DNA of 64,000 nucleotides from Cladosporium sp. IMV 00045 (lineage: Eukaryota > Ascomycota > Dothideomycetes > Cladosporiales > Cladosporiaceae): contig MSJI02000910.1 in the NCBI GenBank assembly GCA_001931905.2, positions 17,481 through 81,480 of the forward strand. Reading direction: 5' to 3'. The notes under the pieces are model-generated. The model saw nothing but the letters and a program-made list of their open reading frames with translations, was not told the origin of the DNA and made no database searches. Positions 13,140-31,906 of this stretch are shown in pieces (the stretch's first letter is position 1; each line of letters begins with the position of its first letter). A program made the translations under genes and the position numbers.

Positions 13140-14378
13140 CTAAGTGCTCTTCATAGCCTCAAGCTGCGCCGCGCTCTCCGCAGCGAAAAGCTCACTCTTC
13201 TTCGCCCTCTTCTTGAGCACGTTCTCAATGAACGCTTCGCCAGCCTTGTAGCTGCTGCGCACCAGCGGGCCGGAAGCGCAGTACATGAAACCCAAGTCCA
13301 GAGCGCGCTGCCTCCACAGCTCGAAAGTGGCCGGCGTCACGTACTCCTCGACCTTCATGTGGCGCTTGGTCGGGCGCATGTACTGGCCGAAAGTGACGAC
13401 GTCGACGCCCACGCTGCGCAGCTGCTTCAGGGTGTCCCACAGCTCGGCTTCCGTCTCGCCTAGGCCCAGCATGATTGAGGTTTTGGTGATGAGCTCTGGT
13501 CGGGCTTCTTTCGCGGCTTTGAGGACGGAAATTGATTGGGGGAAGGTCGCGCGGCGGTCGCGCACGTAAGGGGTGAGGCCGGGTGTGGTTTCGACGTTGT
13601 GGGCGTAGACGTCGAGACCGGAGCGGGCAACGAGCGCTACTTGCTCCAGATCGCCGGAGTAGTCGCCCGTCAGCGCTTCGACGAGGGTGGAAGGCGACTT
13701 CTGCTTGATTTTGATGATGGTCTCAGCGAAGTGACGAGCGCCACCGTCGACCAAATCGTCGCGGTCAACGCTGGTCAGGACGACGTAACCGAGACCCCAT
13801 CGTGAGAGAGCCTCAGCGGTGTTCTCCGGCTCGTGCGGGTCGAGAGGCGGAGGCGCGCGAGAAGTCTTGACGGAGCAGAAGCGGCAGCCTCGTGTGCAGG
13901 TGTCTCCCATAAGCATGATCGTCGCTGTCGCCGCGCTCTTGTCACTTCCGCCCCAGCAGTCAGAGATGTTGGGGCATTTCGCTTCCTCGCACACAGTGTG
14001 CAAACCCAATCCTCGCAAGTCATTCTTGATCTTCTTGTAGTTGTTGTTGCTCGGGATAGGCGTCTTCAACCACTCTGGCAGACGAGTGTGCGTTCTCTTG
14101 CGGCCGGCGGGACCGACCTGGACAGTCTTGAGCTCAAGTGCATCTTCGGGTGTGATGGGCTCCTCTGGCTTGCCGCCGACGAAGTCTGCGAACGAAGGAC
14201 CTGCATTGAGGCGGTCGGAGAAGCTGCTCGAAGGTCTGGGTTTGGCAGATGATTGTGTGACGGTTGAAGGCTCGTTGACGGTGGTGGCGAAGCAGCGCTT
14301 TTGCGGAACGAGGGAGGATCGGGAGTCGAAAAGCGCAGAGGCGACGAAGCGCCTAGCTGGAGGTCTGATCGCGGCCAT
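13140..14378 (-). CDS. LIP5: Lipoyl synthase, mitochondrial
   Basis: Radical-SAM enzyme that inserts two sulfurs into protein-bound octanoyl groups to make lipoyl cofactors for pyruvate and 2-oxoglutarate dehydrogenases and the glycine cleavage system. Single exon, 412 aa. The N-terminus (about 60 residues) is rich in Arg, Ser and Ala with few acids and fits a mitochondrial targeting peptide. The auxiliary cluster motif [12 protein letters not shown] (Cys 130, 135, 141) and the radical-SAM motif CTRGCRFC (Cys 161, 165, 168) are intact, as is the C-terminal RSSYKAGE motif that ligates the auxiliary cluster. The frame is open further upstream but without [13 protein letters not shown] at 14378 is the first ATG. 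It is divergent from the molybdopterin synthase gene with 270 bp between start codons. Confidence 0.97.
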
Positions 14379-14648
14379 CGCTGTGTGTAAAGGGTGTATG
14401 AGGTGGATGTTGGTGAAAGTTGCGATGCAATTGTTTGACAATTCCAACCATGTCGATAGGGCGTGCAAGGGTTCAACTGCTCAGCGATAGAAACCGAAGA
14501 GCGGCGGCTTCGCCTCCGAGAACAAGCCGTGATTTGCCGCTCACCATGTCCGGGCCCCCACCACTCGTCAAGCATTCATCGCCCGCAATCACTTGCCTGT
14601 GTTGGAACTCACTTCCCATAGAAAACAACATAACACATATACCAGATT
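14379..14648. promoter_or_regulatory. Shared divergent promoter of lipoyl synthase and molybdopterin synthase genes
   Basis: 270 bp separate the two start codons on opposite strands, so this short segment must contain both promoters and leaders. Both products belong to sulfur-dependent mitochondrial or cofactor metabolism, so co-regulation is conceivable, but no operator was identified. Confidence 0.5.
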
Positions 14649-15270
14649 ATGGCAGCCCCCTCAGCATCAGAGAACACCAGCAATGATAGCGGTTTCTCTG
14701 CCCGCCTATTCGAGGGCGAAAAGTCATCCTCCTCACAAGATGTCTTCGTCTCACTCACCTATGACGAGCTCGATGCCAAAAACATGATGGACCGAGTAAA
14801 GAGTCCGAAAGCAGGCGCTGTAGTTCTGTTTGCTGGTATATCTCCCTCTTCAACGATAATCGCCATCAGTCTCCAGCACCAATCACTGACACCTATCGCG
14901 CAGTAAGCTAAAATGTAGGCTCTCTGTAGGTTGTACTCGCGACTCTTTCGCTGGTGAAACAGTCACTCATCTCGCTTATTCCTCGTACCCTCCTCTGGCT
15001 CTGCGTACGCTGCAATCGATCGCGACTGGTATTAAAGAGAGACATGGCTTGGTGGCCATCGCTGTGACCCACCGCTTGGGTAAGGTGGACATCGGAGAGG
15101 AGAGCATTTTGATCGCTGTGAGCTCGCCACATCGACAAGCAGCTTGGAAGGCTGGCGAGGAATGTTTGGAGGAGGTCAAGGAGAAGGTCGAGGTCTGGAA
15201 AGAAGAGTGGTTCGCCGACGGAGGCGTATGGAGGGCCAATCGAGATGGCCAACATGGTGTGAAGGTGTGA
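14649..15270 (+). CDS. Molybdopterin synthase catalytic (large) subunit, MoaE family
   Basis: Converts precursor Z (cPMP) to molybdopterin using sulfur from the thiocarboxylated small subunit; cytosolic step of molybdenum cofactor synthesis needed for nitrate reductase and other Mo enzymes (cnxH in Aspergillus, MOCS2B in humans). Exons 14649-14835 and 14930-15270 give 175 aa. Family motifs: GAVVLFAG before the intron, CTRDSFAGE after it, the YSSYPPLALRTL helix, the AVTHRLGKVDIGEESILIAV core with the conserved His-Arg, the SSPHRQAAW segment, and VEVWKEEWF with the catalytic-site Lys. The N-terminal 30 residues are Ser-rich and unconserved. Confidence 0.93.
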
Positions 15271-15383
15271 GCTGCGAGAGATGCCCGAAGGTCGCGTGGC
15301 CGCCGGCTGCAATCGTGGCCGAAGTCGAGAAATATACTCATGGATATCATAAACTATTTTTACAGTGCTTGCCCTCCGCTCTA

Positions 15384-16034
15384 TTACTTCCGACCCTGCT
15401 GTGCACCGATCAGAGCCTTGGCCTCTGCCGTCGCCTGCTCTTTCCTCTCCATCTCCATTAGCTTGTCCACGATCTCCTCTTTGAGATTCCCAAACCCATC
15501 CTTCCGACTCAGCATCTCAGCTACCCACGCTTCAATTTCTTGGTCTGCATCCGTCTCTCCTCCATACACATCGAATCCCACACCCTTCCGCACCTTCTCT
15601 CTCAAATCCTCCACATCCGCGATGTCGTAGTACATGAAGCCGGCGCCGATGGCAGTCATGAAAACGGACACTGTATTCATAGTGGCGAGACCCAAAGCCT
15701 CAACGGCGTCCAGCCCTCCCTCAGCTTTCGGTGGAGGTGCATTTGAAGGTGTGAATTTGGTAGGTATTGGCGGGCGCTTGCGAATGAGTGAGCGGCGCGT
15801 TACCCATGCGCTGAGCATGGCGAATCCTAGACCGCCAAAGAAGAGAGCATTCTGTCTGCGGAATCGTCTAGCGGGGTCTATACGTTCCACCGCTGCTGAG
15901 GTGGTGGAGGGTTTGATCTGGTCTCGTTGGAGCTTGTTCTCGGGATGTTCGCTTGGAGGTGGAAGTGGAGGTGCGAGTGCTCGGCGACGAGCGCGTAGGT
16001 CACCGGGAGCGAAGTAGCGGTCCCAGAGAGACAT
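15384..16034 (-). CDS. AIM11: AIM11-like mitochondrial membrane protein
   Basis: Homologue of altered inheritance of mitochondria protein 11, a small membrane protein of unknown biochemical role whose loss in yeast affects mitochondrial inheritance. Single exon, 216 aa. It starts MSLWDRYFAP, then an Arg/Pro-rich linker, a first hydrophobic segment around residues 62-80 (NALFFGGLGFAMLSAWVTRR), a second around 112-136 (GLATMNTVSVFMTAIGAGF), and a C-terminal acidic helical part (DVEDLREKVRKGVGFD and WVAEMLSRKD), in the order seen in fungal AIM11 proteins. It converges with the molybdopterin synthase gene, 113 bp apart. Confidence 0.8.
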   Translation of the reverse strand: MSLWDRYFAPGDLRARRRALAPPLPPPSEHPENKLQRDQIKPSTTSAAVERIDPARRFRRQNALFFGGLGFAMLSAWVTRRSLIRKRPPIPTKFTPSNAPPPKAEGGLDAVEALGLATMNTVSVFMTAIGAGFMYYDIADVEDLREKVRKGVGFDVYGGETDADQEIEAWVAEMLSRKDGFGNLKEEIVDKLMEMERKEQATAEAKALIGAQQGRK

Positions 16035-16837
16035 GTAAGCGAGTGTAGTCTTTGAGTATTAAAGTGGGTGTTGTTGGTATATCAGTGCCCAAGGGTCTGT
16101 TGCTTTGATTGCTTTAGCTTTGGAGCCTGCCAACATCCGAGGTGGGCTGATTGACTGGCTGGCCCTGGTGTTTCACTTCCCCAGATTGCGCTTGCATGGG
16201 CAAGGGCGAGGCCAGCGAGTTGGACCTCGCGCCTACCTACTCTACATCCGTGCTGCTGCGCCTTGGACTCAACATCCAATAACAACACCCATCACTCTCT
16301 CATACCATCACTCTGAACCCCACCGCCTGTGTACAACAGTCACATCCGGACGACTCTCTTCCTCTGTTTGATACTCACGCACTATATTCGTCTAGAAGAG
16401 CCGGGACAAGGCTGGAGAGCAAGGGAAGACAGGGATTCACTTGCTCTTGAACGGAAAGACGACGGGATACTACACTACACTGCACTGCACTGCGATCAGA
16501 GGCCTTGCATTTTTCATTCATACCTACAATTGCCGCTCTGTCTGCGAGCTCTGTTTCTATCCTTTGTACACTTCGCTTCTGTACGTATTGACCATGGCAC
16601 GGGCGCATCATATACTTGAGGGATCATGGCGGGAATGGCGGCGATTGGGAACTCTCTCCTTTTTCTATTGTACTTATTCTGACAAAGCTTGATTCAGACC
16701 TCGCATCGCGCGGAGCAGAGTGTACATATACTCAGAGACAGAAACAGGACGGCGAGCCGATTAAGCACATTGACGTAGCCAGCCTATACACCTCTACCTC
16801 GTTGGCACTAATCTAGCGCGGCTTGGACTCTCACATC
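16035..16837. other. Divergent intergenic region
   Basis: About 800 bp between the start codons of AIM11 (-) and the RRM gene (+), holding both promoters. Reading frames here are short, and none resembles a family known to me. Confidence 0.5.
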
Positions 16838-18085
16838 ATGTCTGGCGAAGACGATAACTTCGATATCGATATTTATGGTGACGAAGAGGAAGCACAGCCG
16901 CAGCAGCAGCAGCAGCAGCAACAGGAGCAAACGCAAGAAGGCGACGACTTTGATTACAACTACGAAGAGACGCAGGAGCAGCAGAACAGCACAGACAACA
17001 ATGGCCAGAAGCACGCCTCTAACGGCGGCAACGACGCAACGAACAACCATGAGGCTTTACAGCCTCCCGCAGCAAAACAATCCGCTGTTCCACAACAGAA
17101 CCTCAAACGCAAAGCGCCAGATGACGAGTCCGAAGAACAACAAGCACAGCGCCCATCCACCAGCCAGACACCCGTCGCCACCGACGGCCGCCCACTAGAC
17201 CCAGGCGCCCTCCCAGCCCTGAAACTCTCCGAACTCCACTGGTGGACAACAGAAGAAGACCTACGCGCCTTCTGCGCCGCGGCCAACACCGAGCCGGAGC
17301 TCCGCGAAGTCGCTTTCGGCGAGCACAAAATCAACGGCAAAAGCCGTGGCGAAGCCTACCTAGAATTCACCTCCCCGGCAGCAGCGACCGCCACCAAACG
17401 CGAAATTGAGCGCATGAACGCCGAGAACGCAGCGAAAGAGCCCGGCACAGGTCCCAAGGACAAATTCCAAGCCTGGTACACGCAAGTGGGCAACCCCTAC
17501 CGCGGCAAAGACGGCGCGGTGGGCGAGAAGAAATTCGGCGGGCAGGCGGGCAAATTCAACAACCAGGGCGGCGCGTATAACAACAACTACCAGGGCCGCG
17601 GCAACTTCGGCGGCGGGCGCGGAAACTACAATCGCGGTGGAGGCTTCAACAACAATAATAACAACAACATGATGGGCCGCGGCGGCGGCAACCAGAACCA
17701 GTGGGGCATGAACGGCGCCGCCGCAGCGGGCTTCACCAACCCCATGATGGCAGGCTATGGCAACATGTACGGCAACATGGGCTACGGCGGCAACAACATG
17801 ATGGGAGGCGGTCGCGGAGGCATGATGAACGGCATGATGGGCGGTGGCGGCCGCGGTGGTTTCAACGGCATGAATATGGGTATGGGCGGGATGGGAGGTA
17901 TGGGGATGGGGAACATGATGGGCGGGTTGGGGAATATGGGCGGTATGGGCATGAATGCGGGTGGAGGTGGAGGCGGAGGTAGAGGTGGAGGTATGATGGG
18001 TCGAGGTGGTGGTGGCTGGGGTGGTGGAGGGATGGGGATGGGTGGGATGGGTGGTCAGGGGAATAAGAAGCCTAGAATGGAGTAG
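16838..18085 (+). CDS. RRM protein with CPSF6-like domain and Gly/Met-rich low-complexity tail
   Basis: Single exon, 415 aa, from ATG 16838 (the frame is open slightly further but only from a TTG). N-terminus acidic with a polyglutamine run near residues 22-29, followed by a charged linker. One RRM lies at about 126-200: ALKLSELHWWTTEEDLRAF and then EVAFGEHKINGKSRGEAYLE, where the WWTTEEDL signature is that of the CPSF6/CPSF7 subunits of cleavage factor Im. From about 225 to the end the protein is almost entirely Gly, Asn, Met and Arg with RGG-like and GGMGGMGM patterns, a prion-like, phase-separating composition. A role in pre-mRNA 3' end processing is inferred from the RRM; a general RNA-binding or transport role is the alternative. 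The RS-like tail of animal CPSF6 is absent. Confidence 0.8.
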   Translation: MSGEDDNFDIDIYGDEEEAQPQQQQQQQQEQTQEGDDFDYNYEETQEQQNSTDNNGQKHASNGGNDATNNHEALQPPAAKQSAVPQQNLKRKAPDDESEEQQAQRPSTSQTPVATDGRPLDPGALPALKLSELHWWTTEEDLRAFCAAANTEPELREVAFGEHKINGKSRGEAYLEFTSPAAATATKREIERMNAENAAKEPGTGPKDKFQAWYTQVGNPYRGKDGAVGEKKFGGQAGKFNNQGGAYNNNYQGRGNFGGGRGNYNRGGGFNNNNNNNMMGRGGGNQNQWGMNGAAAAGFTNPMMAGYGNMYGNMGYGGNNMMGGGRGGMMNGMMGGGGRGGFNGMNMGMGGMGGMGMGNMMGGLGNMGGMGMNAGGGGGGGRGGGMMGRGGGGWGGGGMGMGGMGGQGNKKPRME

Positions 18086-18620
18086 GGTTGCTTCTGAGGG
18101 TTTTTCTCCTCACTGACTACTTTGAAGAGAAAGAGACTTGAGGGTTTGCATGCAGACATGCAAGGAAACGAGAGAGAAGGGAGTACATTTTCGGCTAATG
18201 CTTTTGGTTTCTTCTCTTCTTTCTCCTTTCTGGACATTGATATCATCATCTAGCGTGGCGTATGGTTCTTTTCTTACGCTTTTATATCTTCATTTTCTTT
18301 GGGTGGGAGTCATGGATATGAGACAGACTGGAGGTCGGGAAACAACGGGCTTCATGTAAGTTAATGTTGGTGGCGTTCTTACAAGGGGAAATGGAGATTG
18401 ATATACAAACATTTCATTAGTTCTCCTTCTGGTCAATTTGTTTTCTTTTCCTTGGCCATGTGATACGCCGTGAATCGAAAGATGTGAGGGACTTCTATGT
18501 TGAAGCGGTTCGGTACATCTAGCGACTACATACAGGAAAACCTCGTTAGCCACTCCGTATGTTACTTGCCGAATTGTGATAGGAGTGAATGCTCTGCTGA
18601 AATATCACGATGGAAAGTGA
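18086..18620. other. Convergent intergenic region
   Basis: About 535 bp between the stop codons of the RRM gene (+) and the NACHT-ankyrin gene (-). T-rich on the plus strand, as expected for 3' UTRs. No gene or repeat seen. Confidence 0.5.
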
Positions 18621-21600
18621 CTATAGATCTTCGTCCTTGTCGATGAAGGTGGCACCTCTTTCGAGCAGAAGTCGCTTAATCTCCTCGTTGTCGCTATGAT
18701 TACGCCGTTCCGGTTTCCGCACTCGTCCAACAGAGGCACCACGCTCCAAAAGCAACTTCACAACCGGCAGGAAAGAACGTTCTGACGCCCTCGAGAGTGC
18801 AGTGTCTCCACGATTGCAATTGGCATCGATGTCGGCTCCGTGGTTTAGTAGCATCCTCAGGATATGTTCAGACCTTGCTCCAGCTGCGTAGTGAAGCGCA
18901 GTCAGCCCGTCACTGTCTCTGACGTTGATGTCAGCCTGGTTGTTGATCAGTAACTGTGCAGTGTCGCCATGATTATTGTAAGATGCCAGCATGAGTGCCG
19001 TACTCAGCGTGTTATCGCGGGCATTGACATCGGATCCTTTGTCAAGTAGCATCTTTACAATCCCCTCGTTTCCCCAAATGGCTGCATATTGAAGGGCAGT
19101 GCGCACTGCTCTATCTTTGAGACTCACGTCTGCTCCGCTCTCCAGCAACATGTCAACAATGTCGTTGTAACCCAGACGTGATGCAAGTATGAGAGCAGTT
19201 TCTGCCCTATCGGCGAGGGCATTGACATCGGCTCCTCTGTCAAGCAGCATTTGCACGATTGATGAATGCTTATTTTGAGCTGCAAGATGAAGTGCATTTT
19301 CGCCATCGGAGGCCCTGAGGTCGAGGCTCGCTCCGCTTTCCAGCAGGATCCGCACAACTTTCATCTTGCCTTCACGTGATGCCCTCATAAGTGCAGTGGA
19401 TGACGCTAAGCCTCGAGAGTCGACGTCGACGCCAGCAGCCAGCAGTAATTGTACTGTCTTGTCGCGACCTTGCAAAGCCGCCTCCATTAATGCCGCGCTT
19501 CCATCTACGAGGTTCAGTGCAAGTCGAACGATCGCTTCGGGTGCTAGATTGTCCCAAGCACCTTCGGGAAGGGCATCGCCTCTTTCATGCAGTTGATCTG
19601 CTACAGTATGATGTGTCATCAGAGTTCGAAGGATGTCGATGTTCGCTCGCTGGATAGCCAATCGGAGTTCCATGTGTGAAGAGCTTCTTAATGCAGCACC
19701 GGAATCTATTAGGCTCCGCACCATCTCAAGATGATCCTTTTTGACTGCTAGGGACAGGCAGGTGCAAGAATCTTTAGCCGGGGAATCAGGACTTGCGCCA
19801 TGAGCGAGGAGTAAATTGAACATTCGCTGGTCGTCGAGATCTATAGCAGCACCGAGCAATGATTTGTGCTGCTCGTGCCGCCATCCTTGGTCGCGCGAGA
19901 AGACGGATTCCTCTTGAAGGACTTTTCCCACCAAATTGTGCGCACCGAGCAAGACGAAGATGTAAATCGCCGACGCGTAAACGCTCAATCGGCGGATGTG
20001 ATATCTGACGGTCTTATTGTAGAGCCTGTGCCAAAGGTAGCAGGGAAAGTCGACGGTGAAATCGGTTTGCGACAGGCCGTCACGATGAGCCGAATCCGCA
20101 TGAAACACGAGGCCAGCCAAGGCATAGTCAAGAAAGGGCCAACGAGTCGTTGTGCGAGTTTGCAGACTTTCGATACCTCGCGCGTTGCGACTTAGATGAT
20201 CCATCAGGCCGTCCTGTGGTGAGACAAGGCAGACGGATTCGCACTTTGTGATGTAGTGATGGCAGCATTGCTTGAGTCGGTCATGGCAGAAGCCGCTCAG
20301 ATTATCGTGCAGACCAGGCTCCAGAGTCCTCAGTCCGGTTTCGAGTAGATAGTCTCTCACAGACTCATGGATGAATTGAGTGGTAGGCTGCTTCCCTCTA
20401 GTCAGCTCCGCCAGGCCTCTTGAGGAGTCTAGAATGAACATCTCCATATCGTTGGTGCTCACTTCACCGGGGTCCCAAGCCTCAAGTGGGTCATCATCCA
20501 TGCTACTTGTGACAGCAAAGTACAGCTCTTCACGACTCAAGGGGCGTTTGGCAAACAAAAGCCATTGAAACGTCAGAAGAACCGTCTGTCTGTCACGGTC
20601 GTCCAAAGAGTCTCTCTGCAGTATCCTCTCGAACAGCTCGTGCAGATCCGCTGGGAGCTCCTTTAAGCGACTCTTGAGCTGGGAGACCTTGCCTTGCGAT
20701 TTGGCCTTGTTGAGGATTCGGATCACGAGGACTACCCATAGAAAGATCCCAGAAGCCTTGCGTTGTATTTCGTCTCTGATACCTTGAGCCGCTCTTGAAT
20801 TGCCAATCTGCAGTTTGTTTCTGGTGTAATCTGCAATGTCCAGCTCGTGACCCTCTTGTCCGTCAAGGATCAGCTCCAGGCAGCTTCTGATCAGGATGTG
20901 TGGATAGTGGCGACTTGACAGAAGCACACGAAGGTGGACCTGCTTCTCCACCGCCAATTCGCTGAGCGTCTCAAAAAATTCAATCATGTCTTGTGCTTCG
21001 TCGTCTTCGCATTCGTCAAGCGCATCAACGTAACATGTAAGCCTTGTTGAGCCCATGGCCAGCACAGCTTCCCGGAACATATTTTTGAGTTGTTCGACGT
21101 GCCAGACGCCCTGATGGACTCGCTGGCCAAGGTTCAGCTCCATAGCTGAGAGGCGAGGCACTTTCGTCAAGAGTTGATGTAGTAGTGAGCGATACATCCC
21201 TTCTGCACATCTTTGAAGTTGTGTGCCTCTAGCGTTGAAGAAGAACGAAACGATAGCATCTTCTTTGAACGTTCGCACGCCATGGTCATAAGCGACTTTC
21301 ATCACTGTCGACTTTCCCGCGCCTGGTTTTCCTTTGATCCAGAGGAAACCTTGGTGACTGTGCAAGTCGATCTCATCCTGCCACATTTTGTACTGCTCCG
21401 TCTTGAATAACCACCGGCATGTTTTGGAATATGCCGCACTGATTGTACTGTAACGCTCATCCATCTCGTCAAATGACAGTGCGTCTACGAGTCCTGTGGC
21501 CGTGTCTGGGGTCTGTTCATTAGCCTCTGGTTGAGGCACTGTGGTGGGTGTAGAGTGTTGCGGGTACACATTGTATGTGTTATTGGTGGTGTTGGTCGCA

Positions 21601-21797
21601 TGACTGGTATTTGTGTAGTTACCGAACACACTTCGGGAGTTGCCTTGTGCTGTAGCATTATCGTAACGATTTCCTAAGCGCGGCGCATCGATGTCGAGTC
21701 TTTGCCTCTTCGCTGGAGGACCATTCACGTCGTCATCATCGGTCAACTCTCGACTCCCACCAGATGCCGCGACTTGATTGGATCCTTCTGCGCTCAT
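18621..21797 (-). CDS. NLR-like NACHT-ankyrin receptor with N-terminal amyloid motif
   Basis: Fungal NOD-like receptor, single exon, 1058 aa, ATG at 21797. Order: a disordered charged segment (1-43); a HET-s-related amyloid motif at about 45-60 (YDNATAQGNSRSVFGN); an Asn/Thr-rich spacer; a short helix with KTCRWLFKTEQY that precedes NACHT domains of the HET-E type; the P-loop GKPGAGKST (156-164); FFFNARG and the Walker B-like CYVDALDECED near 255-266; a helical winged region; then about ten ankyrin repeats from roughly residue 660 to the end, several with near-consensus GADVNA-type turns. Family knowledge: NACHT oligomerises on ligand sensing and exposes the N-terminal motif, which templates amyloid folding of a partner. 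The partner is very probably the HeLo protein that starts 597 bp away on the other strand. Ankyrins would be the sensor. The ligand is unknown. Confidence 0.9.
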   Translation of the reverse strand: MSAEGSNQVAASGGSRELTDDDDVNGPPAKRQRLDIDAPRLGNRYDNATAQGNSRSVFGNYTNTSHATNTTNNTYNVYPQHSTPTTVPQPEANEQTPDTATGLVDALSFDEMDERYSTISAAYSKTCRWLFKTEQYKMWQDEIDLHSHQGFLWIKGKPGAGKSTVMKVAYDHGVRTFKEDAIVSFFFNARGTQLQRCAEGMYRSLLHQLLTKVPRLSAMELNLGQRVHQGVWHVEQLKNMFREAVLAMGSTRLTCYVDALDECEDDEAQDMIEFFETLSELAVEKQVHLRVLLSSRHYPHILIRSCLELILDGQEGHELDIADYTRNKLQIGNSRAAQGIRDEIQRKASGIFLWVVLVIRILNKAKSQGKVSQLKSRLKELPADLHELFERILQRDSLDDRDRQTVLLTFQWLLFAKRPLSREELYFAVTSSMDDDPLEAWDPGEVSTNDMEMFILDSSRGLAELTRGKQPTTQFIHESVRDYLLETGLRTLEPGLHDNLSGFCHDRLKQCCHHYITKCESVCLVSPQDGLMDHLSRNARGIESLQTRTTTRWPFLDYALAGLVFHADSAHRDGLSQTDFTVDFPCYLWHRLYNKTVRYHIRRLSVYASAIYIFVLLGAHNLVGKVLQEESVFSRDQGWRHEQHKSLLGAAIDLDDQRMFNLLLAHGASPDSPAKDSCTCLSLAVKKDHLEMVRSLIDSGAALRSSSHMELRLAIQRANIDILRTLMTHHTVADQLHERGDALPEGAWDNLAPEAIVRLALNLVDGSAALMEAALQGRDKTVQLLLAAGVDVDSRGLASSTALMRASREGKMKVVRILLESGASLDLRASDGENALHLAAQNKHSSIVQMLLDRGADVNALADRAETALILASRLGYNDIVDMLLESGADVSLKDRAVRTALQYAAIWGNEGIVKMLLDKGSDVNARDNTLSTALMLASYNNHGDTAQLLINNQADINVRDSDGLTALHYAAGARSEHILRMLLNHGADIDANCNRGDTALSRASERSFLPVVKLLLERGASVGRVRKPERRNHSDNEEIKRLLLERGATFIDKDEDL
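21609..21668 (-). other. HRAM-type amyloid motif (R0) encoded in the NLR N-terminus
   Basis: Residues 44-63 of the receptor. The 16-mer YDNATAQGNSRSVFGN aligns without gaps to both repeats of the neighbouring HeLo protein (YDRNVAEQNARAYYGD and YTNSVVRGHARAQYGD): shared aromatic at 1, Ser/Ala-Arg-Ser/Ala at 10-12, aromatic at 14, Gly at 15 and Asn/Asp at 16. This is the known position of such motifs in NLRs paired with HET-S-like effectors. Amyloid formation has not been shown here. Confidence 0.8.
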
Positions 21798-22394
21798 GCT
21801 GCCGTGTGTGCTGGGTTTGATGACTTGGGTTGGTGTCAAGTGTCAGATGTAAGACAGCAAAGACACCCCAGCCTCGCCGTGCGATGTGGAAGCCAGGTGC
21901 TCGTGGATACCATGCAAAGCTGTCTCAATCAGGTGTTGTCAGCCAAATAAAAGTACTCTCGAGATGTCGTATTTTACAGTAAAGACCTCCCTCAGCTTCG
22001 CCGTGCCTTCTTGAAGCAAGACACTCATGAATATCAGGCTGAGGTATCCCAGTCAGGTGATGTCAGCCAGATGGAAGTACATCGCAAGTGCTTGCATGAG
22101 GCCGCCGCCCCAAGGCGCAGCCTAGCCGCTCGCTTATATCGTCGTGCATGAAGCTGGACCCGCGCCATGCAGAACCTCCAACCAATCGATCAGACGAGTG
22201 GCTGTCTAAGCCTTGCTGTACACGGCGGCAGACAAGCTGAGCCTTGTATGTGCAGAGAAGTGAGAGATGGTATATAGTGGGCGCAGCGCCTCTTCAGTCG
22301 CCAGCATTATATATGAACTGCAAGCATTGTGATCGGTGGAATGTATTAGCACGATTTATTAGTTCAAGTTGCAAGCATCTCACAAGAAAACATA
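21798..22394. promoter_or_regulatory. Divergent promoter between the NLR and HeLo genes
   Basis: 597 bp between the two start codons on opposite strands, so both promoters lie here. It contains an imperfect 87-bp direct repeat (21870-21956 and 21994-22080). No transcription-factor site could be assigned from sequence alone. Confidence 0.6.
21870..22080. repeat. Imperfect 87-bp direct repeat in the NLR/HeLo promoter
   Basis: Two copies at 21870-21956 and 21994-22080, offset 124 bp. Both start with AGC[C/T]TCGCCGTGC and end with CAGGTG.TGTCAGCCA then AAGTAC. About two thirds of positions agree by eye. Many differences are transitions, which would fit ageing or repeat-induced point mutation, but this was not counted rigorously. 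Confidence 0.7.
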
Positions 22395-23392
22395 ATGGCC
22401 GAGCTAGCCATCGGTGCCGTCGGTCTTATTGCGCTCGAAAGCACGGTAAGTTGAAGCTATCTGTATCGTCCAGACCTAACGCAGCGCATGGCTGATAATC
22501 CTCCAGGTGGACAGCTTCTTCACAAAGGCTTCGACATGGAGGCACTACGGCAAAGACTTCGAGCAACACGCCCTTTCGCTCGACTTGGCAAGCATTGCCT
22601 ACAAGAGATGGAGGAAAAGTGTCAGGCTTATGGATGGCACCGCCGATGCACATGTCGCGGAAATGACAGTCGCTTCTGAGGAAGAAGCCTCTACTGTCGT
22701 GAGGCTCCTGGGAACCATCCAACTGGCCTTTCGGAATGCCGAGAAGACCATGGAGCGGTACGCTGGTGATGAATCGGCGGTGGTGCCAAACGCAACATCA
22801 AGTGATCTTGCTGCCAGAGTAGATGCTGTGAACAAAGCTCGCCAGTCCAACGCGAACGCCTTCCAAAAAGCGCGTTGGGTCTTCCGCGATGCAAAGTCTT
22901 TCAAGGAGCTTGCAGAGTAAGACATCATTCGTCGAACGTACCCAGGAAAGCCGCGAGCTAACGTATTCCAGAACTGTATCGCGCAATGTTGAAGGCTTGA
23001 CCAAAGTCTTTCCACCAGCAATCCAAAAGATCCAAGAGCAGCTGGCCGCAGTGGACCTTCAGGACATAGTCCCACCCGGCTCTGCCGCTACAAACTCAGG
23101 AGTGCTCACAGCGGAGAAGCGCGATCTGGCTCAAGTCCGCGACGTTGTCGCCAGCATTGACCCAATACTGCAGCAAGTGGCGGATGAGCAGATTCCGCAG
23201 GTCGGCCGTAGACACCTGTACGATCGAAACGTCGCCGAACAAAACGCTAGGGCCTACTACGGCGATGAGATTTATGGGCAAGATGACCCGAGCAGAGTTG
23301 GCAGTGTGTACACGAATAGTGTGGTCCGTGGACATGCTCGTGCCCAGTATGGAGACAGAGTTAATCCGCAGAGTAGTTTTTGGGATGATTAA
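22395..23392 (+). CDS. HET-S-like HeLo-domain protein with C-terminal amyloid repeats
   Basis: Putative membrane-disrupting cell-death effector of the HET-S/HeLo family. Exons 22395-22445, 22507-22916 and 22972-23392 join to 293 aa, close to the 289 aa of Podospora HET-s/HET-S. The HeLo domain spans about 1-225: a hydrophobic first helix (MAELAIGAVGLIALES, encoded mostly by exon 1), then a helical body with YGKDFEQHALSLDLASIAYK resembling HeLo helix 2-3. The last 62 residues carry two repeats about 30 residues apart, R1 starting at Tyr237 and R2 at Tyr267, and the chain ends FWDD, the same kind of aromatic end as the HET-s prion domain. Family knowledge: the tail folds as a beta-solenoid when templated, releasing the first helix into the membrane. 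Here it lies divergently next to an NLR with a matching motif. Whether it is toxic (S type) or inhibitory (s type) cannot be read from sequence. Confidence 0.9.
23219..23389 (+). other. Two HRAM amyloid repeats (R1, R2) of the HeLo protein
   Basis: R1 is YDRNVAEQNARAYYGD (about 237-252) and R2 is YTNSVVRGHARAQYGD (about 267-282), separated by a Gly/Asp/Pro/Ser linker and followed by a C-terminal FWDD. Spacing and order correspond to the two pseudo-repeats of the HET-s beta-solenoid, each expected to form one winding. Confidence 0.82.
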
Positions 23393-24983
23393 GGGAGGTA
23401 GGTCCCTGTTGGCTCGGCGGATACTTGTTGGCGGGTCATCAAGCAGGTGCCATGAATGAGATGGCTGTTCCGAAAGACTCTTGGTATTTTTTTTGTTGCC
23501 CCTTCATCTGCTCTGGATGTAAGATTGGGAACTAGACGGCGTAGTATCATTGTGTGTATCAAGGATTTGTGGACGCCGAGTCCTCCATTTGAAACTCCTT
23601 TGAAAGGACCACTTCCATGACGGAATATGCGCGAGCACCTCGAGATCCAGCGATAGCCATCACTGCAATGGCAATATTAATCAGGTGCTGTGACCAAATG
23701 GGGATACACAGTCATGCCATGTGGCCGACCACCGAGGCAAGTGAGGTAAGAGGCACCGATTGGGCTGCACAAGCTGGAATGCTGCGATGCAACGCCAGGC
23801 TCCTCGGGCAACGTCGAGCTGAGCAATGGATGTACCTGTCGTCAGTGGTGGTGAGATCCAAGTTACTCAGCGGCCTTTCCTTTGTCCGTCGTGTCGGAAG
23901 GAAAAGAGGACGACCCTATTTCATGGGTGCCCTCTTATAGATTATTGCGGGGCGAAAGCCGAAGGAAAGCCCTCCGCGCGCACGATCGGCCTCTTTGCCA
24001 GCCGAAGCCAGCAAAGCCCAAGCAAGTGGGAGCGAACTGCTGGCCCGAACCTCTGTCTGCCCGTGCAGGTGGTGAGATGTAATTAGGCGATTGGCTTGCT
24101 CGTGCACCTCCTTTCGCCCTGTCATTCATCCGTTGAGGTAGACATGTACCGTCATGTACACAGTAGCTGTGCCTTGTTGCATGAAGATGTCGCTTTCTAG
24201 CTGGGTAGATCTCACGCTGCTGCTACCGGTGAGCTGGGAGGGGCATCAATTGCGCCGATGGCTGCCGGAGGGCTGCCCCAGCTGTATACCCGAGCTGAGC
24301 CCAAGGGTGTCTCTCACATGTATTGGGTGTGGACTGACTGCGATCATGCTGGGGAGATGTTACTGGTATTGACTAGGACTTCACAAGTGGCCGTGTTATC
24401 ATAAGAGATCTGCTCTATTCATCAATTATCGATTATCCCTACTTCCCCGTCGAACCGAATATCCACAGCGCCAGTGGCCCGGAACGAGCTCGCCTGCATG
24501 GACGCTAGCAATCCCCAAGGCGCTGCCCGCATCTGTGCTCGATGCTGTCTCTCGCTCTCTCTGTTGGCCTGCGCGCTGCCTGCACTTAGTAGTTAGCTAT
24601 ACTGCCACTACTACCACGACCGCCATACACCCTACCACCTACTACCCTGACGTGCCCTATACCCTTGCCACGACTCTACACGACTCATTATCTAATCCCA
24701 CTCTCCACCAACGCTTCACCGCAACTACCTACCTTAATCTCCCTCGGCCGGCCGAAACACCTTCTCATTCTCGCCCCAGCTACGTCTACACCCACCACCG
24801 GCTGCAAAGCGGGCATAGCGAAACCCGCCACATACTCACCGGACCGCGTCGGACGACCATTGATGGGACCCAGCTAGCACTTTTGCGCCTCTCTCCCTCC
24901 TCGCCCACCGTGGCACGCCGCCCGATACCTTCGACGTCTTTTCATTCAGTCCCCGCCAGCCGTGCTGGCAAGCTTGCGAGAGC
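23393..24983. other. Intergenic region upstream of adenylate cyclase
   Basis: About 1.6 kb. The right part (24.4-24.98 kb) is rich in CT and AC tracts and looks like a long leader of the cyclase gene. Short frames at 23.6-24.4 kb have no recognisable domain and are not called. Confidence 0.45.
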
Positions 24984-27900
24984 ATGACGCTGCGCGGCAA
25001 ACTCCACATTGGACACAACGCAAGCAGCAATCCTCCTTCGAGCAACCCCACCAGCAACCCTGCCACCGGCCCAGCGAGCAGCGACAACATTCCGCAAAAT
25101 CAATACCAGCAGCGCCATGGCTCTGCTGAGAGTTATCGGTCCACGGACACGGTGAGGGGACCTGGCGTGTCGGCTGTGGATGCGAAAGCGGCGAAAGGAA
25201 CTGGCTTTGGGAAGTTGAAGGGCCAGAAGTCTGGGTAGGTCATATCGTTGGAAATATCCTTTGTTGCGCACTCATGCGGGCGTCGCAATTTGTCGAGGTG
25301 GTTGTGTCCTCTCATCTCAGATCGGGTGGCACGCACGAAACCTCACAGCGTTGTGCAAGCTCACCCGACGCTTGGCTGCAGATTTTGTTCTGCGCGGCTT
25401 CTTGCATGCGCGCATAGCCACTCCATAGTTTGCAGAGCGACAATACTGACATCCGCATGCGCAGATTCGACAACGAAACTGCCGTCTCGCCGGGCAGCCT
25501 GCCTCAAAAACCACAACCGAACCAATCTAGCGCCGACATCGCGCCATGGGACGACGGCGGCCCTTCGCCTATGGAGCAGCCCATGGATAGATACCAGAGC
25601 GAGTTTCCCATACACCATGGCTCAACCAGCACGCCTGCGATCAACCGACATCCTCCCACCTCCAGTGCGATCCCTCCCTGGGCGACAGGCAAACATGACG
25701 GAAGGCAAATGGCCACTTCCGTATTTGACGGATACTTCGCGCATTCAAACGAGAACCTAGGCCAGGTCTCACCAGGCTGCGCTCCACTAGGCGGAATGGG
25801 ATTCCCAGGAGACGGCGAAGACAGACGGCCTTCAATAGCCAGCGCGACCACGATATCGTCACAAGGTTCAAAAGGAAGCATGGGTGGCAAGTTTCAGAAA
25901 AAGCTCCAAGGTTTCTTTGGCGAAGAGTTCGCCAATGAGTCGTCCAGCAGGACAGGAGGATACGGCAGTAGGCAAAACTCGGAGACGAGCTCGTTGAAGA
26001 ACTCCATCCCAGGATTCGCTTCGGGAGGTGGCCCACGGAACAGGAACAACTCCATGAACGATGCTATGCTGAGAGGTAGCGGGCCTCCGAGCCCTACGAG
26101 CTCACGTCCGCGGACACCGGCGCCTGCGCCAAGTAGTGAGGTGACGCCGTGGGTGTACCAAGATACCCAGGTAAGTGTGAAGATGCTTAGAGGTTGAGGA
26201 CGATTGTCCTTTGGAGAATGTCCGGGCTAATAGTTTGGCAGGAAGCGCCCAACCAGAGCAACAGCCAACCATCACAAGCCGAATCTAGCAACAGCGGTCG
26301 ATCACATAAAGCCTCGATTGGTGGACATAGGCTACACCTGCCAGGACACAGGCACAATCGAAGTAACGACGAAAAACAAACCGGGGGTTTTGGCTTTCCT
26401 CTGAGAGCTTCTACAAGTCGTGACCAAACTGCAAATCCCCTGCGACAAGGTTCTACTATGGGCTCAACACTGAATTTGAGGAGCCGTGCAACAAGCCCGT
26501 CGCCGAGCATTAAGAGTGCGCAAAGCCGCGATAATAGCATTGCACAGCGGTCACCCAGTGGACGAGAGCCAAAGCGATCGATTGTGGATCGCATAACAGG
26601 CAGACACAAGCGAGAGAAGGGCGCGCCTGAAGCACTGGGCTCTTCAGCATCTACGACCTCGCTACAAAGTCAGCAACAGTCCCAACGGCCTAACAAGACA
26701 CGCATGGATACAGCCTCCGTATCTCGACCATCAGCACGCCCTATCGAGGGCCCCAATGGCACATCGGCGTCGCAGAAACAGTCACGGTTGCCATTCGGAA
26801 AGCGGCGGGGTGAGACGAGCTCTGAGTCGAAGCAAGCCAAAGATCCAAATGCACATGAGACGGGAGGGGCGGCACTATGGGATCTGGACACAGATTTGAA
26901 CAACATGGAGGGTATCATTGATCGACGGCAACCGCCCATGACACCCCCAGCAAGTGAAATCTACACGGGATTCCCAGGCGAGCAGCAGACCCAGAAGGAA
27001 CAGCAAAAGGAGGAGGCGGGCGCCTGGGACGCACCAGATAGTTGGGCCGTCAAACGAAAAACCGATGAGAACGTCGAACGCTTACGAGAGATCGACGAAG
27101 ACGGCAACATGCCTGGTGATGAAGATCCTGGTCCAATGTACTTCATGCGAATCTTCAGAGCGGATAGCACATTTGCTGTCATATCAGCAAGCCTTAACAC
27201 AACCGCGGCGGAGCTGATCTCCATGATGGCGAAGAAGACCTTCCTCCAAGACGAGCTCGACAACTATCAGATCGTTATGCGCAAACAAGATACAAGTCGG
27301 CAGCTGGAGGCTGGTGAGAGGCCGCTCGTAATGCAGAAGCGGCTGCTAGAGCAGGCTGGATATCACGAAAACGACAAGCTCGAAGATCTTGGACGTGAGG
27401 ACCATGGATACCTCTGTCGATTCACTTTCTTGCCGGCCAAGATGAGCGGCTATTCCAGCTTGGAGCGCGATCCTGGTTTCAACAAGATGCAGCGCTTCAA
27501 CCACATTGACCTGTCCGGGCGCAACCTCGTCACCATCCCAATTGCGCTGTACCAAAAGGCCACCGAGATTATCACACTTAACCTCTCACGAAACTTGAAG
27601 CTTGACATTCCCAAAGACTTCATTCAGAGCTGTACGCAGCTTCGAGAGATCAAGTATACAAGTAATGAGGCCTGGCGGATACCTCAGAGTTTGCCGCTCG
27701 CTCTCAAATTGACAATGCTGGATATCTCCAACAACAGACTGGAGCAACTGGAGCATGCGGAGTTGTTCAAGCTGTCAGGTCTCGTCAGCTTGAAGCTCTC
27801 GAACAACATCCTAAACACCATCCCACAATACTTTGATCGATTTGGCGCCCTGCGGAGTCTCAATCTTTCATCAAACAACCTCAATGAATTCCCCGAAGCT

Positions 27901-30900
27901 CTGCGTGAGCTTGCTACGCTCGTGGACTTGGACGTGAGTTTCAACTCTATCTCTGACCTGGGCGACATCAGCAATTTTACGAACCTCGAAAGACTGTGGG
28001 CTACGAACAACCTACTCGCTGGCCCGCTTCACGGGTCATTTGCCAACCTCACAAATCTCAAGGAGATTGATGCGCGCTTCAATGGTATCAACAACATGGA
28101 TATCGTGTCTCAACTGCCTAAGTTGGAGATGCTTATGCTTGGACACAACTCCATCTCCGCCTTCGAGGGATCCTTCTCGAGACTGAAAGTCTTATATCTC
28201 AACCACAACCCCGTGACGCGCTTTGACCTCAACTCTCCCGTACCAACGCTTTCTGTGCTTAATCTGGCTTCGGCGAAACTTTCACAACTACCTGACGCAT
28301 TGTTTATGAAGATGTCGAACCTTACGAAGCTTACGATCAGCAAAAATCACTTTGTCTCGCTTTCACCGCATTTCGGCAATTTATCAAAACTGGAGTATCT
28401 AAGCATCGCAAAGAATGAGCTCAATCGGATGCCAGCAGAGGTCGGTAGGTTGACCGAGCTGAGATATCTCGATGTGCGTGAAAACAACTTGGACCGCCTG
28501 CCGCCAGAGATCTGGTTCGCGAAGCGCCTCGAAACACTGAACCTGTCTTCCAACGTACTCAGCGAGTTCCCGAAGCCGGGTAACCCGCTACCTGCGCTGC
28601 CAGAATCAGCAGGTACAACGCCTCAACAGACTCCTAGCATGGGCTCTAGTCAAGAGTTTGAAGATGTGGGCAAGTTGGAGGACTTCGCTCTGCGACGTCC
28701 GAGCCAGGCGTCGGGAATGCTCAGTGTGTCTAGCTCGCCGGGAGCAGCTTCTCGAAAGGGCTCTGTCGTCTCGCACTCCTCCCAGAAGATGGGCGGCATT
28801 GGTCGGACTAATACTGCGGCCAGCATGCAAACCATGACACCTCAGAACAGAAAGGACTCGACGCTTTCTAGTAAATTGGCGGCTACGTTTTCGACTTCGT
28901 TGAGGCACTTGTTTCTTGCAGACAACAGACTTGAAGACGATGTGTTCAACGAGCTGGTCTTGCTTCCTGAGCTGAGGATTCTTAATCTCTCTTACAACCA
29001 GCTTTACGATATTCCGCCTCGCACCATCAAGCGTTGGACGCACCTCACAGAGCTGTACTTGTCGGGCAACGACCTCTCTTCCTTGCCGACAGAGGATCTT
29101 GAGGAGGGCTCTTCGCTCAAAGTCCTGCACATCAACAGCAATAAGTTCCAAGTCCTACCAGCTGAGCTGGGTAAAGTGCAGAAGCTTGCAATCCTTGACG
29201 TTGGTAGCAACATGCTCAAGTATAACGTGTCCAACTGGCCTTACGACTGGAATTGGAATTGGAATCACCAACTCCGATACCTCAACCTGTCCGGCAACAA
29301 ACGCCTCGAGATCAAGCAGACGCCCAACGCCGCGAATGGGCGTGAGTCTAGGGACCTCACGGACTTCTCTTCGCTGGTCAACTTGCGCATTCTTGGTCTC
29401 ATGGACGTGACGTTGACGATCCCCTCAATCCCGGACCAAGCACCAGACCGCCGTATTAGAACGGCAGGCTCAGTGATCGGGACTAGTATGCCCTATGGTA
29501 TGGCCGATACTCTGGGACGCAATGAGCACCTCTCCACCCTCGACATGGTCGTGCCTCGCTTCCGAGGACATGAAGCCGAAACACTCATCGGTCTTTTCGA
29601 CGGACAGTCTCTCTCCTCGGGCGGAAGTCGTGTAGCCAAGTACCTTCACGAGAAGTTCAAGCACGTCTTCAGCGAGGAGTTGGAAAAGATCAAGTCTGGC
29701 GAAACTCCCGTCGATGCGCTCAGGCGAACCTACCTGGGTCTGAACAAAGACCTCGCCACGGCTGCCATGCAAGCCATCAATGAGAGGGAACACCCTGGCA
29801 GCGCGCTCGTCCACCGAGGTAGCGTCTCGGGTCCTGAACTGGGAGATGACGACATGACCAGCGGTAGTGTCGCTACGGTCATGTACCTCCACGGGATGGA
29901 GCTGTTCATGTCGAACGTGGGCGATGCTCAGGCGTTGCTGATTCAATCTGAGGGCGGACATCGTGTCATCACTCGCAAGCACGACCCTGCAGAGTCGCTC
30001 GAGAGGCAACGCATTCGCGAGGCGGGTGGCTATGTTTCCAGACAGGGCAAGCTCAACGACCAGCTGGATGTCTCAAGGGCATTTGGGTTTGTGCAACTCA
30101 CGCCTTGTGTGATTGCTGCACCGCACGTTGTTCAGGTCACTCTCAAGGAGTCCGATGAGATGATTCTGCTGGCTTCGCGTGAACTGTGGGACTACCTGAC
30201 GCCAGACTTCGCGGTCGATGTTGCGCGTTCAGAGCGTGGCGATCTGATGCGTGCGGCTCAGAAGCTGAGAGATCTCGCCATCGCTTTTGGCGCGACAGGA
30301 AAGATCATGGTCATGATGATCGGCATCACGGACCTGAGGAAGCGCGAGCGCGCAAAGGTCCGCACGCACAGCATGAGCATGGGTCCCTCCGGCTCGCCAC
30401 CGCTCGACTACTTCAGTGCTGGTCGCAAAGGCAAGCGTGGCAGGGAGAACGTCGGCGACTCCAAACTCGCCCGTCTCGACCAGGAAGTCGACGCCCCCGT
30501 TGGCGATGTCACCTTGGTGTTCACCGACATCAAGAACTCGACCATCCTCTGGGAAACATACCCCATCGCCATGCGCTCTGCCATCCGCATGCACAACGAA
30601 GTCATGCGCCGTCATCTCCGTATCATCGGTGGATACGAAGTCAAGACCGAAGGTGACGCTTTCATGGTCGCCTTCCCAACCGTCACCAGCGCACTGCTGT
30701 GGTGTTTCACCATCCAGTCTCAACTCCTCGAAGTCCAGTGGCCGCAGGAGATTCTCTCCTCAGTCCACGGCGACGAAGTCCAAGACGCCGACGGCAACGT
30801 CATCTTCCGCGGCCTCAGCGTCCGCATGGGAATCCACTGGGGTCAACCCGTGTGCGAGGTCGACCCAGTGACAAAACGCATGGACTACTTCGGCCCCATG

Positions 30901-31734
30901 GTCAACCGCGCCGCACGTATTGAGGGAGTCGCGGACGGCGGCCAAATCTGCGTGTCCTCCGACTTCATCGCCGAAGTGCAACGCCTGCTCGAATCCCACA
31001 TCGAAACCGACCGCACCAACTCCACCGGCAGCGAAGAGACCATGTCCGACGACCTCCTCTCCGAAGCCATCCGTCGCGAACTCCGCTCTCTCTCCTCTCA
31101 AGGCTTCGAAGTGAAAGACCTCGGCCAGCGAACCTTGAAGGGCCTCGAAAACCCAGAATACATCTACCTCATGTACCCACACAGCCTGGCGTCGCGCCTG
31201 CTCGTGCAGCAGCAAAAAGCCGAGGCGGAAGCGCGCTCCAACGCCGAGAAGGACCAGCTCACGTCCCGCCAGCGCGGTCAGCCGCTTACCGTCGATACGC
31301 AGAATGTCTGGGATTTGTGGAACGTCAGCTTGCGCCTTGAGATGCTCTGTTCCAGTTTGGAGAGTACCGGTGTGACGAGCCTCAAACCGCCCGAGACCGC
31401 GCTGCTGGAGCGCATGAAGCAGCGCGAGGGCGAGGTGACGGATCGCTTCTTGGTCAATTTCGTGGAGCATCAGATTAGTAGGATTGAGGTAAGTCATCAC
31501 CGTCACGATCACTATCATTGTGTGTTTTGTTGTGAACGGGAAATGCTGACCGAGTCTTCTTCCTTCCAGACTTGCATCTCCACCCTAGCAATCCGCAACA
31601 TGGTCCGGCCCTTCAAGAACGGCATGCTCGAGCAGGCGTGCCCGATGCACGATATTCTCACCGATGTCGCCAGTCAGCTGGGTGAGTTGAAGGAGTTGAG
31701 ACGCCAGGCGGACTTTGAGATGGCGCCTTCTTGA
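24984..31734 (+). CDS. Adenylate cyclase, Ras-associating, LRR, PP2C-like
   Basis: Makes cAMP from ATP, upstream of protein kinase A; peripheral membrane enzyme controlled by Ras and G-protein signals. Exons 24984-25234, 25438-26170, 26242-31488 and 31570-31734 give 2131 aa, normal for filamentous fungi. Order: Ser/Pro-rich disordered N-terminus (to about 620); Ras-association domain (about 625-715, begins GPMYFMRIFRADSTF); about twenty leucine-rich repeats (about 750-1350) interrupted by a Ser-rich insert near 1120-1210; a PP2C-like domain (about 1425-1695) lacking several metal ligands; class III cyclase catalytic domain (about 1750-1975) with metal-binding Asp1757 in VFTDIKNST and Asp1800 in KTEGDAFMVAF, and the NRAARIEGVADGGQI stretch; C-terminal helical tail. 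The first-exon splice uses an AGAG acceptor at 25434-25437; only the second AG keeps the frame. Known as CYR1/CYAA/UAC1 in other fungi. Confidence 0.95.
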
Positions 31735-31869
31735 TTTTTTTTTTTTTTTCTTGATTTTCCTGAGGGAAGGTCCACCTTTTTTTTATGCCTTTTTTCTTGG
31801 TTTTGAATCTTTCGCGCGTCTTTTTGTTTTATTCTGATTTGTGTGACGAATGCTTCGCGAAGCCTGGCG

Positions 31870-31906
31870 TTTTTTTTTTTTTTTTTTTTTTTTTTTTTGG
31901 GGGGGG
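31870..31906. repeat. T29G8 homopolymer tract
   Basis: 29 consecutive T followed by 8 G, about 135 bp after the adenylate cyclase stop codon. The length is probably unreliable in the assembly. A captured poly(A) tail of a retrotransposed element (read on the minus strand) is an alternative, but no element body was recognised. Confidence 0.85.

What the first reader, a model, noticed from the sequence alone, without database searches (positions are those of the whole stretch)
18621..23392. Divergent NLR / HET-S-like pair: candidate amyloid-templated cell-death system
A NACHT-ankyrin receptor (-) and a HeLo protein with a HET-s-type C-terminal tail (+) start 597 bp apart, and both encode copies of the same short motif. 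In established systems (HET-S with the NWD2 receptor in Podospora) an activated NLR motif templates the beta-solenoid fold of the effector tail, and the HeLo domain then permeabilises the membrane. This locus has all parts with ankyrin repeats rather than WD40 as sensor. The members of the family are known; this particular pair may be undescribed.
Basis: partly seen in the sequence, partly recalled or inferred. Interest (0 to 1): 0.92.

Follow-up and report, generated by a model that had tools for sequence, protein, structure and literature searches.

The report
Fungal prion-type cell-death gene pair
Two neighbouring fungal genes, a sensor and a membrane-attacking protein that share a prion-like signalling motif, most likely form a self-killing immune switch of an already described kind, in a genome that holds many more sensors with the same kind of motif.

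Summary
A NACHT-type (NPHP3_N) ankyrin receptor (18621-21797, -) and a three-exon HeLo protein (22395-23392, +, 293 aa) start 597 bp apart. The HeLo domain is clear (Pfam 2e-23; HET-S/s structures 2e-13). A motif profile from 18 unlinked receptors of this genome ranks the two tail repeats and the receptor motif as the top three of 221 window ORFs. This is the published HRAM NLR/HeLo arrangement, HRAM3-like; ankyrin sensors are ordinary in fungal NLRs. New member of a known kind.

Context adds interest. The genome (49.9 Mb, probably hybrid Hortaea werneckii; inferred) holds a second copy: flanks 92% identical, pair core 81%, ankyrin part hardly alignable; HeLo domain conserved, tail not; its receptor is frameshifted. 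Of 69 surveyed NLR N-termini 28 match an HRAM profile (20 helped build it), yet only two intact HRAM-tailed HeLo genes and one broken one were found. Several unlinked receptor motifs match the effector tail better than its neighbour's. A many-receptors-to-one-effector network is the most testable idea. Amyloid formation, templating and killing are inferred, not shown.

The parts
18621..21797 (-). NLR receptor gene, one exon, 1058 aa: r0 motif, NPHP3_N/NACHT-type domain, ankyrin repeats
21615..21677 (-). r0: single HRAM-like motif, about aa 41-61 of the receptor
   Evidence: positions counted from the translation
20910..21422 (-). NPHP3_N (NACHT-type) domain with P-loop and Walker-B-like stretch, aa 126-296
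18621..19310 (-). Main ankyrin-repeat block (about aa 830-1058): the proposed sensor; weaker repeats lie further upstream
21798..22394 (.). 597-bp divergent intergenic region, 84% identical to the second copy over aligned bases
22395..22445 (+). Effector exon 1: N-terminal hydrophobic stretch of the HeLo domain
22507..22916 (+). Effector exon 2: most of the HeLo domain
22972..23392 (+). Effector exon 3: end of HeLo, linker, tail with r1 and r2, stop codon
23207..23269 (+). r1: first HRAM-like repeat, aa 233-253
23297..23359 (+). r2: second HRAM-like repeat, aa 263-283, followed by a short end with F and W

Best explanation
A two-gene amyloid signalosome of the HRAM NLR/HeLo kind. The ankyrin part of the receptor senses a ligand, the NACHT-type domain oligomerises, and the clustered r0 motifs fold into a beta-solenoid. 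That fold templates the r1-r2 tail of the neighbouring HeLo protein, whose HeLo domain then attacks the cell's own membrane and kills the cell. Shown here: gene structures, domains, motif copies, divergent pairing in two copies of the locus, and the pattern of conservation. Inferred from the family: ligand sensing, oligomerisation, amyloid fold, templating, membrane attack. The ligand is unknown. Because the genome carries many other HRAM-bearing NLRs and few tailed HeLo proteins, the effector may also answer to unlinked receptors (inference).
For: HeLo 2e-23 and NPHP3_N plus ankyrin; match to solved HET-S/s HeLo chains 2wvo, 2wvq, 2wvn at 2.4e-13 to 1.3e-12. One motif in the receptor and two in the tail, above chance. 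Published marks met: effector under 310 aa, two repeats, a 9-residue loop (published 6-18), G at 19 and R at 15 in all three motifs, an aromatic end, an adjacent NLR with one copy (rules; read). Opposite charges at position 11 of r1 and r2 (E and R; D and R in the second copy), one of the salt-bridge positions of HET-s. The pair is divergently paired in both copies. 58 of 120 listed NLR relatives carry the motif upstream of the P-loop.
Against: Each motif misses one of the five usual hydrophobic core positions (position 16 in r0, position 8 in r1 and r2). PF11558 is not matched. The leave-out profile finds r0 only at 0.055 and does not find r1 of the second copy. AlphaFold of the tail alone was uninformative, pLDDT 57, with a helix predicted across part of it. 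r0 lies at aa 41-61, not at the extreme N-terminus as is usual for HRAMs (PMC9815663, passages). No experiment.
Confidence: 0.8

Rival explanations
1. Hub reading: the HeLo protein is a shared executor of an HRAM network, addressed by many unlinked NLRs, and the adjacent receptor is only one input or mainly a regulator.
For: 28 of 69 surveyed NLR N-termini match the HRAM profile with no control hit. Six HeLo matches in the genome, of which two have intact HRAM tails and one a broken one. By raw ungapped BLOSUM62 score, 11 of 20 other r0 motifs beat the neighbour's r0 against r1, 7 of 20 against r2 and 6 of 20 against both. Signalling between non-adjacent genes is suspected for HRAM3-type motifs, with a mean ratio of 5.7 to 1 (PMC9815663 section 27).
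Against: Similarity is not cross-seeding, and discrete HRAM classes can be insulated (PMC7889193, passages). Effectors were sought only among HeLo matches, PNP_UDP matches and by tail similarity; HeLo-like C-terminal ends were read for only two loci. 69 of 133 NPHP3_N matches were read. Several motif-bearing NLRs look like two copies of one gene, so the count per parental genome is lower.
Confidence: 0.4
2. Non-self-recognition (incompatibility) locus: the pair forms old, divergent haplotypes kept by balancing selection, two of which met in a hybrid.
For: Sequence identity falls from about 92-95% to 67-88% between roughly 17.8 and 23.8 kb, centred on the pair, with stretches of the ankyrin part not aligning. 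dS 0.67 for NLR aa 1-351 and 0.98 for its NACHT-type domain, against 0.25-0.35 in three flanking genes. P0005 is 94-97% identical in aa 101-400 but 55-59% in aa 701-1000. HET loci were raised as possible players in H. werneckii hybrids (PMC9535773, passages).
Against: Effector dS 0.46 (0.35-0.57) overlaps the spread of adenylate cyclase windows (0.28-0.55). No confidence interval was computed for the NLR dS. Two copies of one genome and one unnamed relative are no population sample. High divergence of repeats is common in fungal NLRs and needs no incompatibility.
Confidence: 0.25
3. The second copy, and perhaps the pair as a whole, is decaying: the fast tail reflects relaxed constraint after duplication, not adaptation.
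For: The C597 receptor is frameshifted near aa 351-354. Tail identity is 50% with dN/dS 0.75 (0.37-1.61) against 0.11 (0.06-0.18) for aa 1-230. The leave-out profile does not find r1 of C597.
Against: The HeLo part is 92% identical with dN/dS 0.07, r0 is 87% identical, and both frames of the C597 receptor around the break stay conserved. The window copy is intact. A sequencing error at the break is not excluded.
Confidence: 0.2
4. Chance motif: two unrelated genes that merely stand side by side.
For: Each shuffle test alone is only moderate (about 6e-4 to 4.5e-3).
Against: Leave-out profile ranking, conserved pairing, motif in 58 of 120 listed NLR relatives, and a weak two-repeat tail in the distant HeLo relative P0135.
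Confidence: 0.04

Closest known systems
HET-S / NWD2 of Podospora anserina (HRAM1)
   Same: HeLo effector with two C-terminal motif repeats beside an NLR with one N-terminal copy (PMC4518210)
   Different: Ankyrin repeats here, WD40 in NWD2; motif HRAM3-like and not caught by PF11558; r0 at aa 41-61
HRAM3-type NLR/HeLo pairs (published example from Cladophialophora psammophila, PMC5485727 figure legend)
   Same: H at motif position 3 in r1 here and in many NLR motifs of this genome; two-repeat tail; adjacent NLR
   Different: N in r0 and S in r2 at position 3; the HRAM1/HRAM3 border is blurred in print too. The published HRAM3-like NLR12 class was tied to single-copy PNP_UDP effectors
HELLF/FNT1 and HELLP/PNT1 pairs of P. 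anserina
   Same: Adjacent NLR and membrane-acting effector that share an amyloid motif (PMC7889193, passages)
   Different: HeLo-like instead of HeLo domain; HRAM5 and PP motifs
Fungal NLRs with highly conserved internal repeats
   Same: The C597 receptor has a near-perfect 198-bp tandem repeat in its ankyrin part, the kind of internal conservation described in PMC5485727 (passages)
   Different: The window receptor has no such array

Membership tests
HRAM NLR/HeLo pair | N-terminal HeLo domain in a protein under about 310 aa | tested here: met
   PF14479 2e-23, 293 aa; HET-S/s structures 2.4e-13
HRAM NLR/HeLo pair | Two C-terminal motif repeats with a 6-18 residue loop and an aromatic end | tested here: met
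   r1 aa 233-253, r2 aa 263-283, loop 9, end with F and W
HRAM NLR/HeLo pair | G at 19, positive residue at 15, hydrophobic residues at 5, 8, 10, 16, 18 | tested here: inconclusive
   G19 and R15 in 3 of 3 motifs; hydrophobic core 4 of 5 positions in each (read by the rules)
HRAM NLR/HeLo pair | Adjacent NLR with a single N-terminal motif copy | tested here: met
   r0 at aa 41-61, NPHP3_N 5e-32, ankyrin repeats, 597 bp away; also in the second copy
HRAM NLR/HeLo pair | Beta-solenoid fold of the tail | tested here: inconclusive
   AlphaFold on the tail alone: pLDDT 57, pTM 0.33
HRAM NLR/HeLo pair | Amyloid formation, templating, HeLo-dependent cell death | not testable with these tools
   Needs peptides and cells
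Canonical HET-s prion domain (PF11558, HRAM1) | Match to the PF11558 profile | tested here: not met
   No hit at E up to 1; only 38 of 155 published HRAM proteins match it
HRAM3 subfamily | H at motif position 3 | tested here: inconclusive
   H in r1, N in r0, S in r2; second copy H in r1 and r2, N in r0
Heterokaryon-incompatibility locus | Locally raised divergence between haplotypes | tested here: inconclusive
   Divergence island around the pair, but only two copies of one genome
Heterokaryon-incompatibility locus | Several old haplotypes in a population; death on fusion of unlike strains | not testable with these tools
   No strain collection and no experiment here

The most novel reading that the evidence does not exclude
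The HeLo gene is the executor of a many-to-one amyloid network (perhaps a dozen or more unlinked NLRs per parental genome), and its locus is a divergent non-self-recognition haplotype block. The hybrid holds two such blocks in one nucleus, tolerated because one receptor is broken and the two effector tails have drifted apart.
Probability: 0.14. Interest if true: 0.75.

Novelty: new member of a known kind. Interest (0 to 1): 0.46.

Why it matters
If right, a black yeast for which CRISPR is reported (PMC11705896, search listing only; that this is the organism is inferred) would hold a prion-type death switch with many candidate inputs and two naturally divergent versions in one nucleus. That would make two open questions testable: whether unlinked NLRs share one amyloid effector, and whether such loci limit or shape hybrid formation.

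Tried and rejected
AlphaFold of the isolated tail gave pLDDT 57 and was set aside; no fold search was run on it. The first exon join for the C597 effector was a script error: its effector values are discarded and those used, while the NLR and adenylate cyclase values stand. One search timed out and was rerun. Other HeLo proteins were considered as further executors: the two C420 genes and the C852 gene show no HRAM tail in the stretches held; C637 has two HRAM4-like repeats in different frames and is only described. A possible second motif pair at C882/C627 was weak (18 of 1000 shuffles in one of several segments tried). The comparison of the two copies could not be carried past about 31.9 kb. 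A paper search for shared-effector precedent with six terms gave, among the 10 listed of 25, nothing relevant beyond PMC9815663.
Full report
What is there. The receptor runs from ATG 21797 to stop 18621 on the minus strand, without introns, 1058 aa. The effector starts at 22395 on the plus strand and has three exons, 293 aa; 597 bp separate the starts. Pfam gives NPHP3_N 5e-32 and ankyrin repeats 5e-69 for the receptor (the NACHT model itself only 5e-4, below its cut-off) and HeLo 2e-23 for the effector. By sequence the HeLo part matches the solved HET-S/s chains 2wvo, 2wvq and 2wvn (2.4e-13 to 1.3e-12). P-loop and Walker-B-like stretches are intact.

The shared motif. The receptor has one copy (r0, about aa 41-61), the effector tail two (cores from aa 235 and 265). 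r0 scanned over the effector puts r1 and r2 first and second (3 and 6 of 5000 shuffles reach those scores); r1 and r2 over the receptor both pick r0 (9 and 8 of 2000). The strongest test uses a profile from 18 motifs of unlinked receptors in this genome, without any motif of the pair or of its second copy: among 221 window ORFs of at least 100 aa its top three hits are r2, r1 and r0 (1.8e-8, 3.5e-4, 0.055), and the fourth has E 37. The 18 motifs had been picked by a rule written after the pair was seen, so it is not blind. Published rules (PMC4518210, parts 1-3 of 5 read) are met for effector length, repeat number, loop length, G19, R15, the aromatic end and the adjacent single-copy NLR. Each motif misses one of five hydrophobic core positions, and the PF11558 profile is not matched, as for 117 of the 155 published members. 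r1 and r2 carry opposite charges at position 11 (E and R here, D and R in the second copy), a published salt-bridge position.

The organism. The window is part of a 49,867,185-base, 954-contig assembly. Size, a G+C of about 54% in the window and a diverged second copy fit diploid hybrid Hortaea werneckii (mean 49.30 Mb and 53.4% G+C in PMC9535773, passages; about 90% of genes in two copies in the first sequenced strain, PMC7325687, passages). This is inference; no sequence of that species was matched by name.

The second copy. Contig C597 carries the same divergent pair between the same neighbours. Flanks align at 92% (14051-18407 and 23550-31873) and the pair core at 81% (19999-23386); in 500-base steps the ankyrin part shows no match or short ones. 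dS is 0.29, 0.25 and 0.35 in three flanking genes, 0.46 (0.35-0.57) in the effector, 0.67 over NLR aa 1-351, and 0.98 in its NACHT-type domain (no interval computed for the NLR). The effector value overlaps the spread of adenylate cyclase windows (0.28-0.55), so the excess is clear for the receptor and weak for the effector. In the effector the HeLo part is 92% identical (dN/dS 0.07) and the tail 50% (0.75, bootstrap 0.37-1.61); a dN excess of the tail as large as seen occurs in 0 of 2000 permutations. r0 is 87% identical. The leave-out profile finds r2 but not r1 of the C597 effector, which fits decay of that copy as well as change of specificity. The C597 ankyrin part holds a 198-bp tandem repeat, 3.1 copies at 98% match; the window receptor has no array. 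The C597 receptor is interrupted by a frameshift near aa 351-354, where sequencing error is not excluded; the window copy is intact.

Relatives. Of 120 listed NLR relatives (2839 passed the threshold among the 7994 candidates scored), 58 have a motif-profile hit upstream of the P-loop. P0005, from an unnamed source, is 94-97% identical in aa 101-400 and 55-59% in aa 701-1000; P0006 of Cladosporium fusiforme has a similar motif. The effector searches gave 4 hits, one of them the window's own ORF, and 16, mostly single exons or fragments. P0135 carries a two-repeat tail that the full profile supports and the leave-out profile finds only weakly (0.23 and 4.1). P0128 (HeLo, 71% over its exon) and P0027 (motif-bearing NLR) both have 7053 bases as longest contig, which suggests, without proof, that they sit on one contig.

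The network. I read 69 NLR N-termini of 133 NPHP3_N matches (loci). A rule-based scan of held loci found 31 hits against a mean of 0.4 in 20 shuffles; the 31 include 5 effector-tail hits, 3 repeats of the same place and 1 evident chance hit on the other strand, leaving 22 receptors. The profile finds 28 of 69, with none in reverse-strand and shuffled controls; 20 of the 28 gave motifs to the profile, and of the other 8 one (C171) has the same 22 letters as a profile row and two are weak (0.008 and 0.076). C2, with a Q-type motif, was found by the rule only. Several of the 28 look like two copies of one gene, so the number per parental genome is lower; I did not count it. HeLo matches in the genome: six, of which C906 and C597 have intact tails and C637 a broken one. 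The tail search found no other tailed effector, its third match (E 0.49) being an NLR N-terminus, and the four PNP_UDP loci showed none. The HeLo-like family PF17111 has 15 matches, of which two C-terminal ends were read. By raw similarity 11 of 20 other r0 motifs beat the neighbour's r0 against r1, 7 of 20 against r2, and 6 of 20 against both. This fits the published suspicion of signalling between non-adjacent genes for HRAM3-type motifs (PMC9815663, section 27 and passages), but similarity is not cross-seeding.

Mechanism. The family model (PMC12881547, passages; PMC4518210) is ligand binding, NLR oligomerisation, r0 folding, templating of r1-r2 and HeLo membrane attack. Here the parts and their arrangement are shown; every step of the action is inferred.

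Print status. Papers that hold both 'Hortaea werneckii' and 'HET-s': 0. 'Hortaea' with 'heterokaryon incompatibility' gave six, of which PMC9535773 and PMC11412873 were looked into by passages; PMC9535773 treats HET and Het-C families in the passages I saw. 'Hortaea', 'NLR', 'NACHT' (two of three) gave 1,545 papers, 15 listed, only PMC11412873 among them naming Hortaea. So this pair appears undescribed in the held library; subscription journals and preprints were not searched, and the organism is inferred.

Noticed in passing
L010 (C852:22500-32499): NACHT-type match C852:24486-25061 (-), HeLo match C852:27241-27795 (+): A second divergent HeLo/NLR neighbourhood: the NLR side has an HRAM motif, while the HeLo protein has a long kinase-like C-terminal part (by eye; not tested) and no HRAM tail found.
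   Followed up: partly
L011 (C637:57500-66000): A HeLo gene with 3 TGA inside the match and two HRAM4-like repeats (Q at position 18) lying in different frames: a decayed or badly assembled effector. No NPHP3_N match was listed on that contig; the C2 receptor has a motif of the same Q type.
   Followed up: partly
C882:38864-41340 and C627:47593-49285 (L025, L026, L093): HeLo-like (PF17111) gene beside an NLR in divergent orientation; the effector end has two short similar stretches, and the NLR side has a faintly similar one (18 of 1000 shuffles). Possibly another motif family; weak.
   Followed up: partly
C385:75432-78882: Another divergent neighbourhood of a HeLo-like (PF17111) gene (+) and a NACHT-type gene (-); no HRAM motif found on the NLR side.
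   Followed up: no
L007 4908-5513 (C597 receptor, ankyrin part): Near-perfect 198-bp tandem repeat, 3.1 copies at 98% match, absent from the window copy: recent repeat turnover in one of the two sensors.
   Followed up: partly
window about 31300-47000: Identity to C597 falls at about 31.3-31.9 kb and the alignment ends there; a search with 32000-47000 found only five short matches elsewhere in the genome. A break of synteny, or a second copy that is missing or unassembled.
   Followed up: no
window 26194-31734 (+), 13140-14426 (-) and 47988-52331 (+): Ordinary neighbours: adenylate cyclase (PP2C, LRR and cyclase domains) and lipoyl synthase, and a large ORF that looks like an RNA-dependent RNA polymerase (by eye; not tested).
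   Followed up: no
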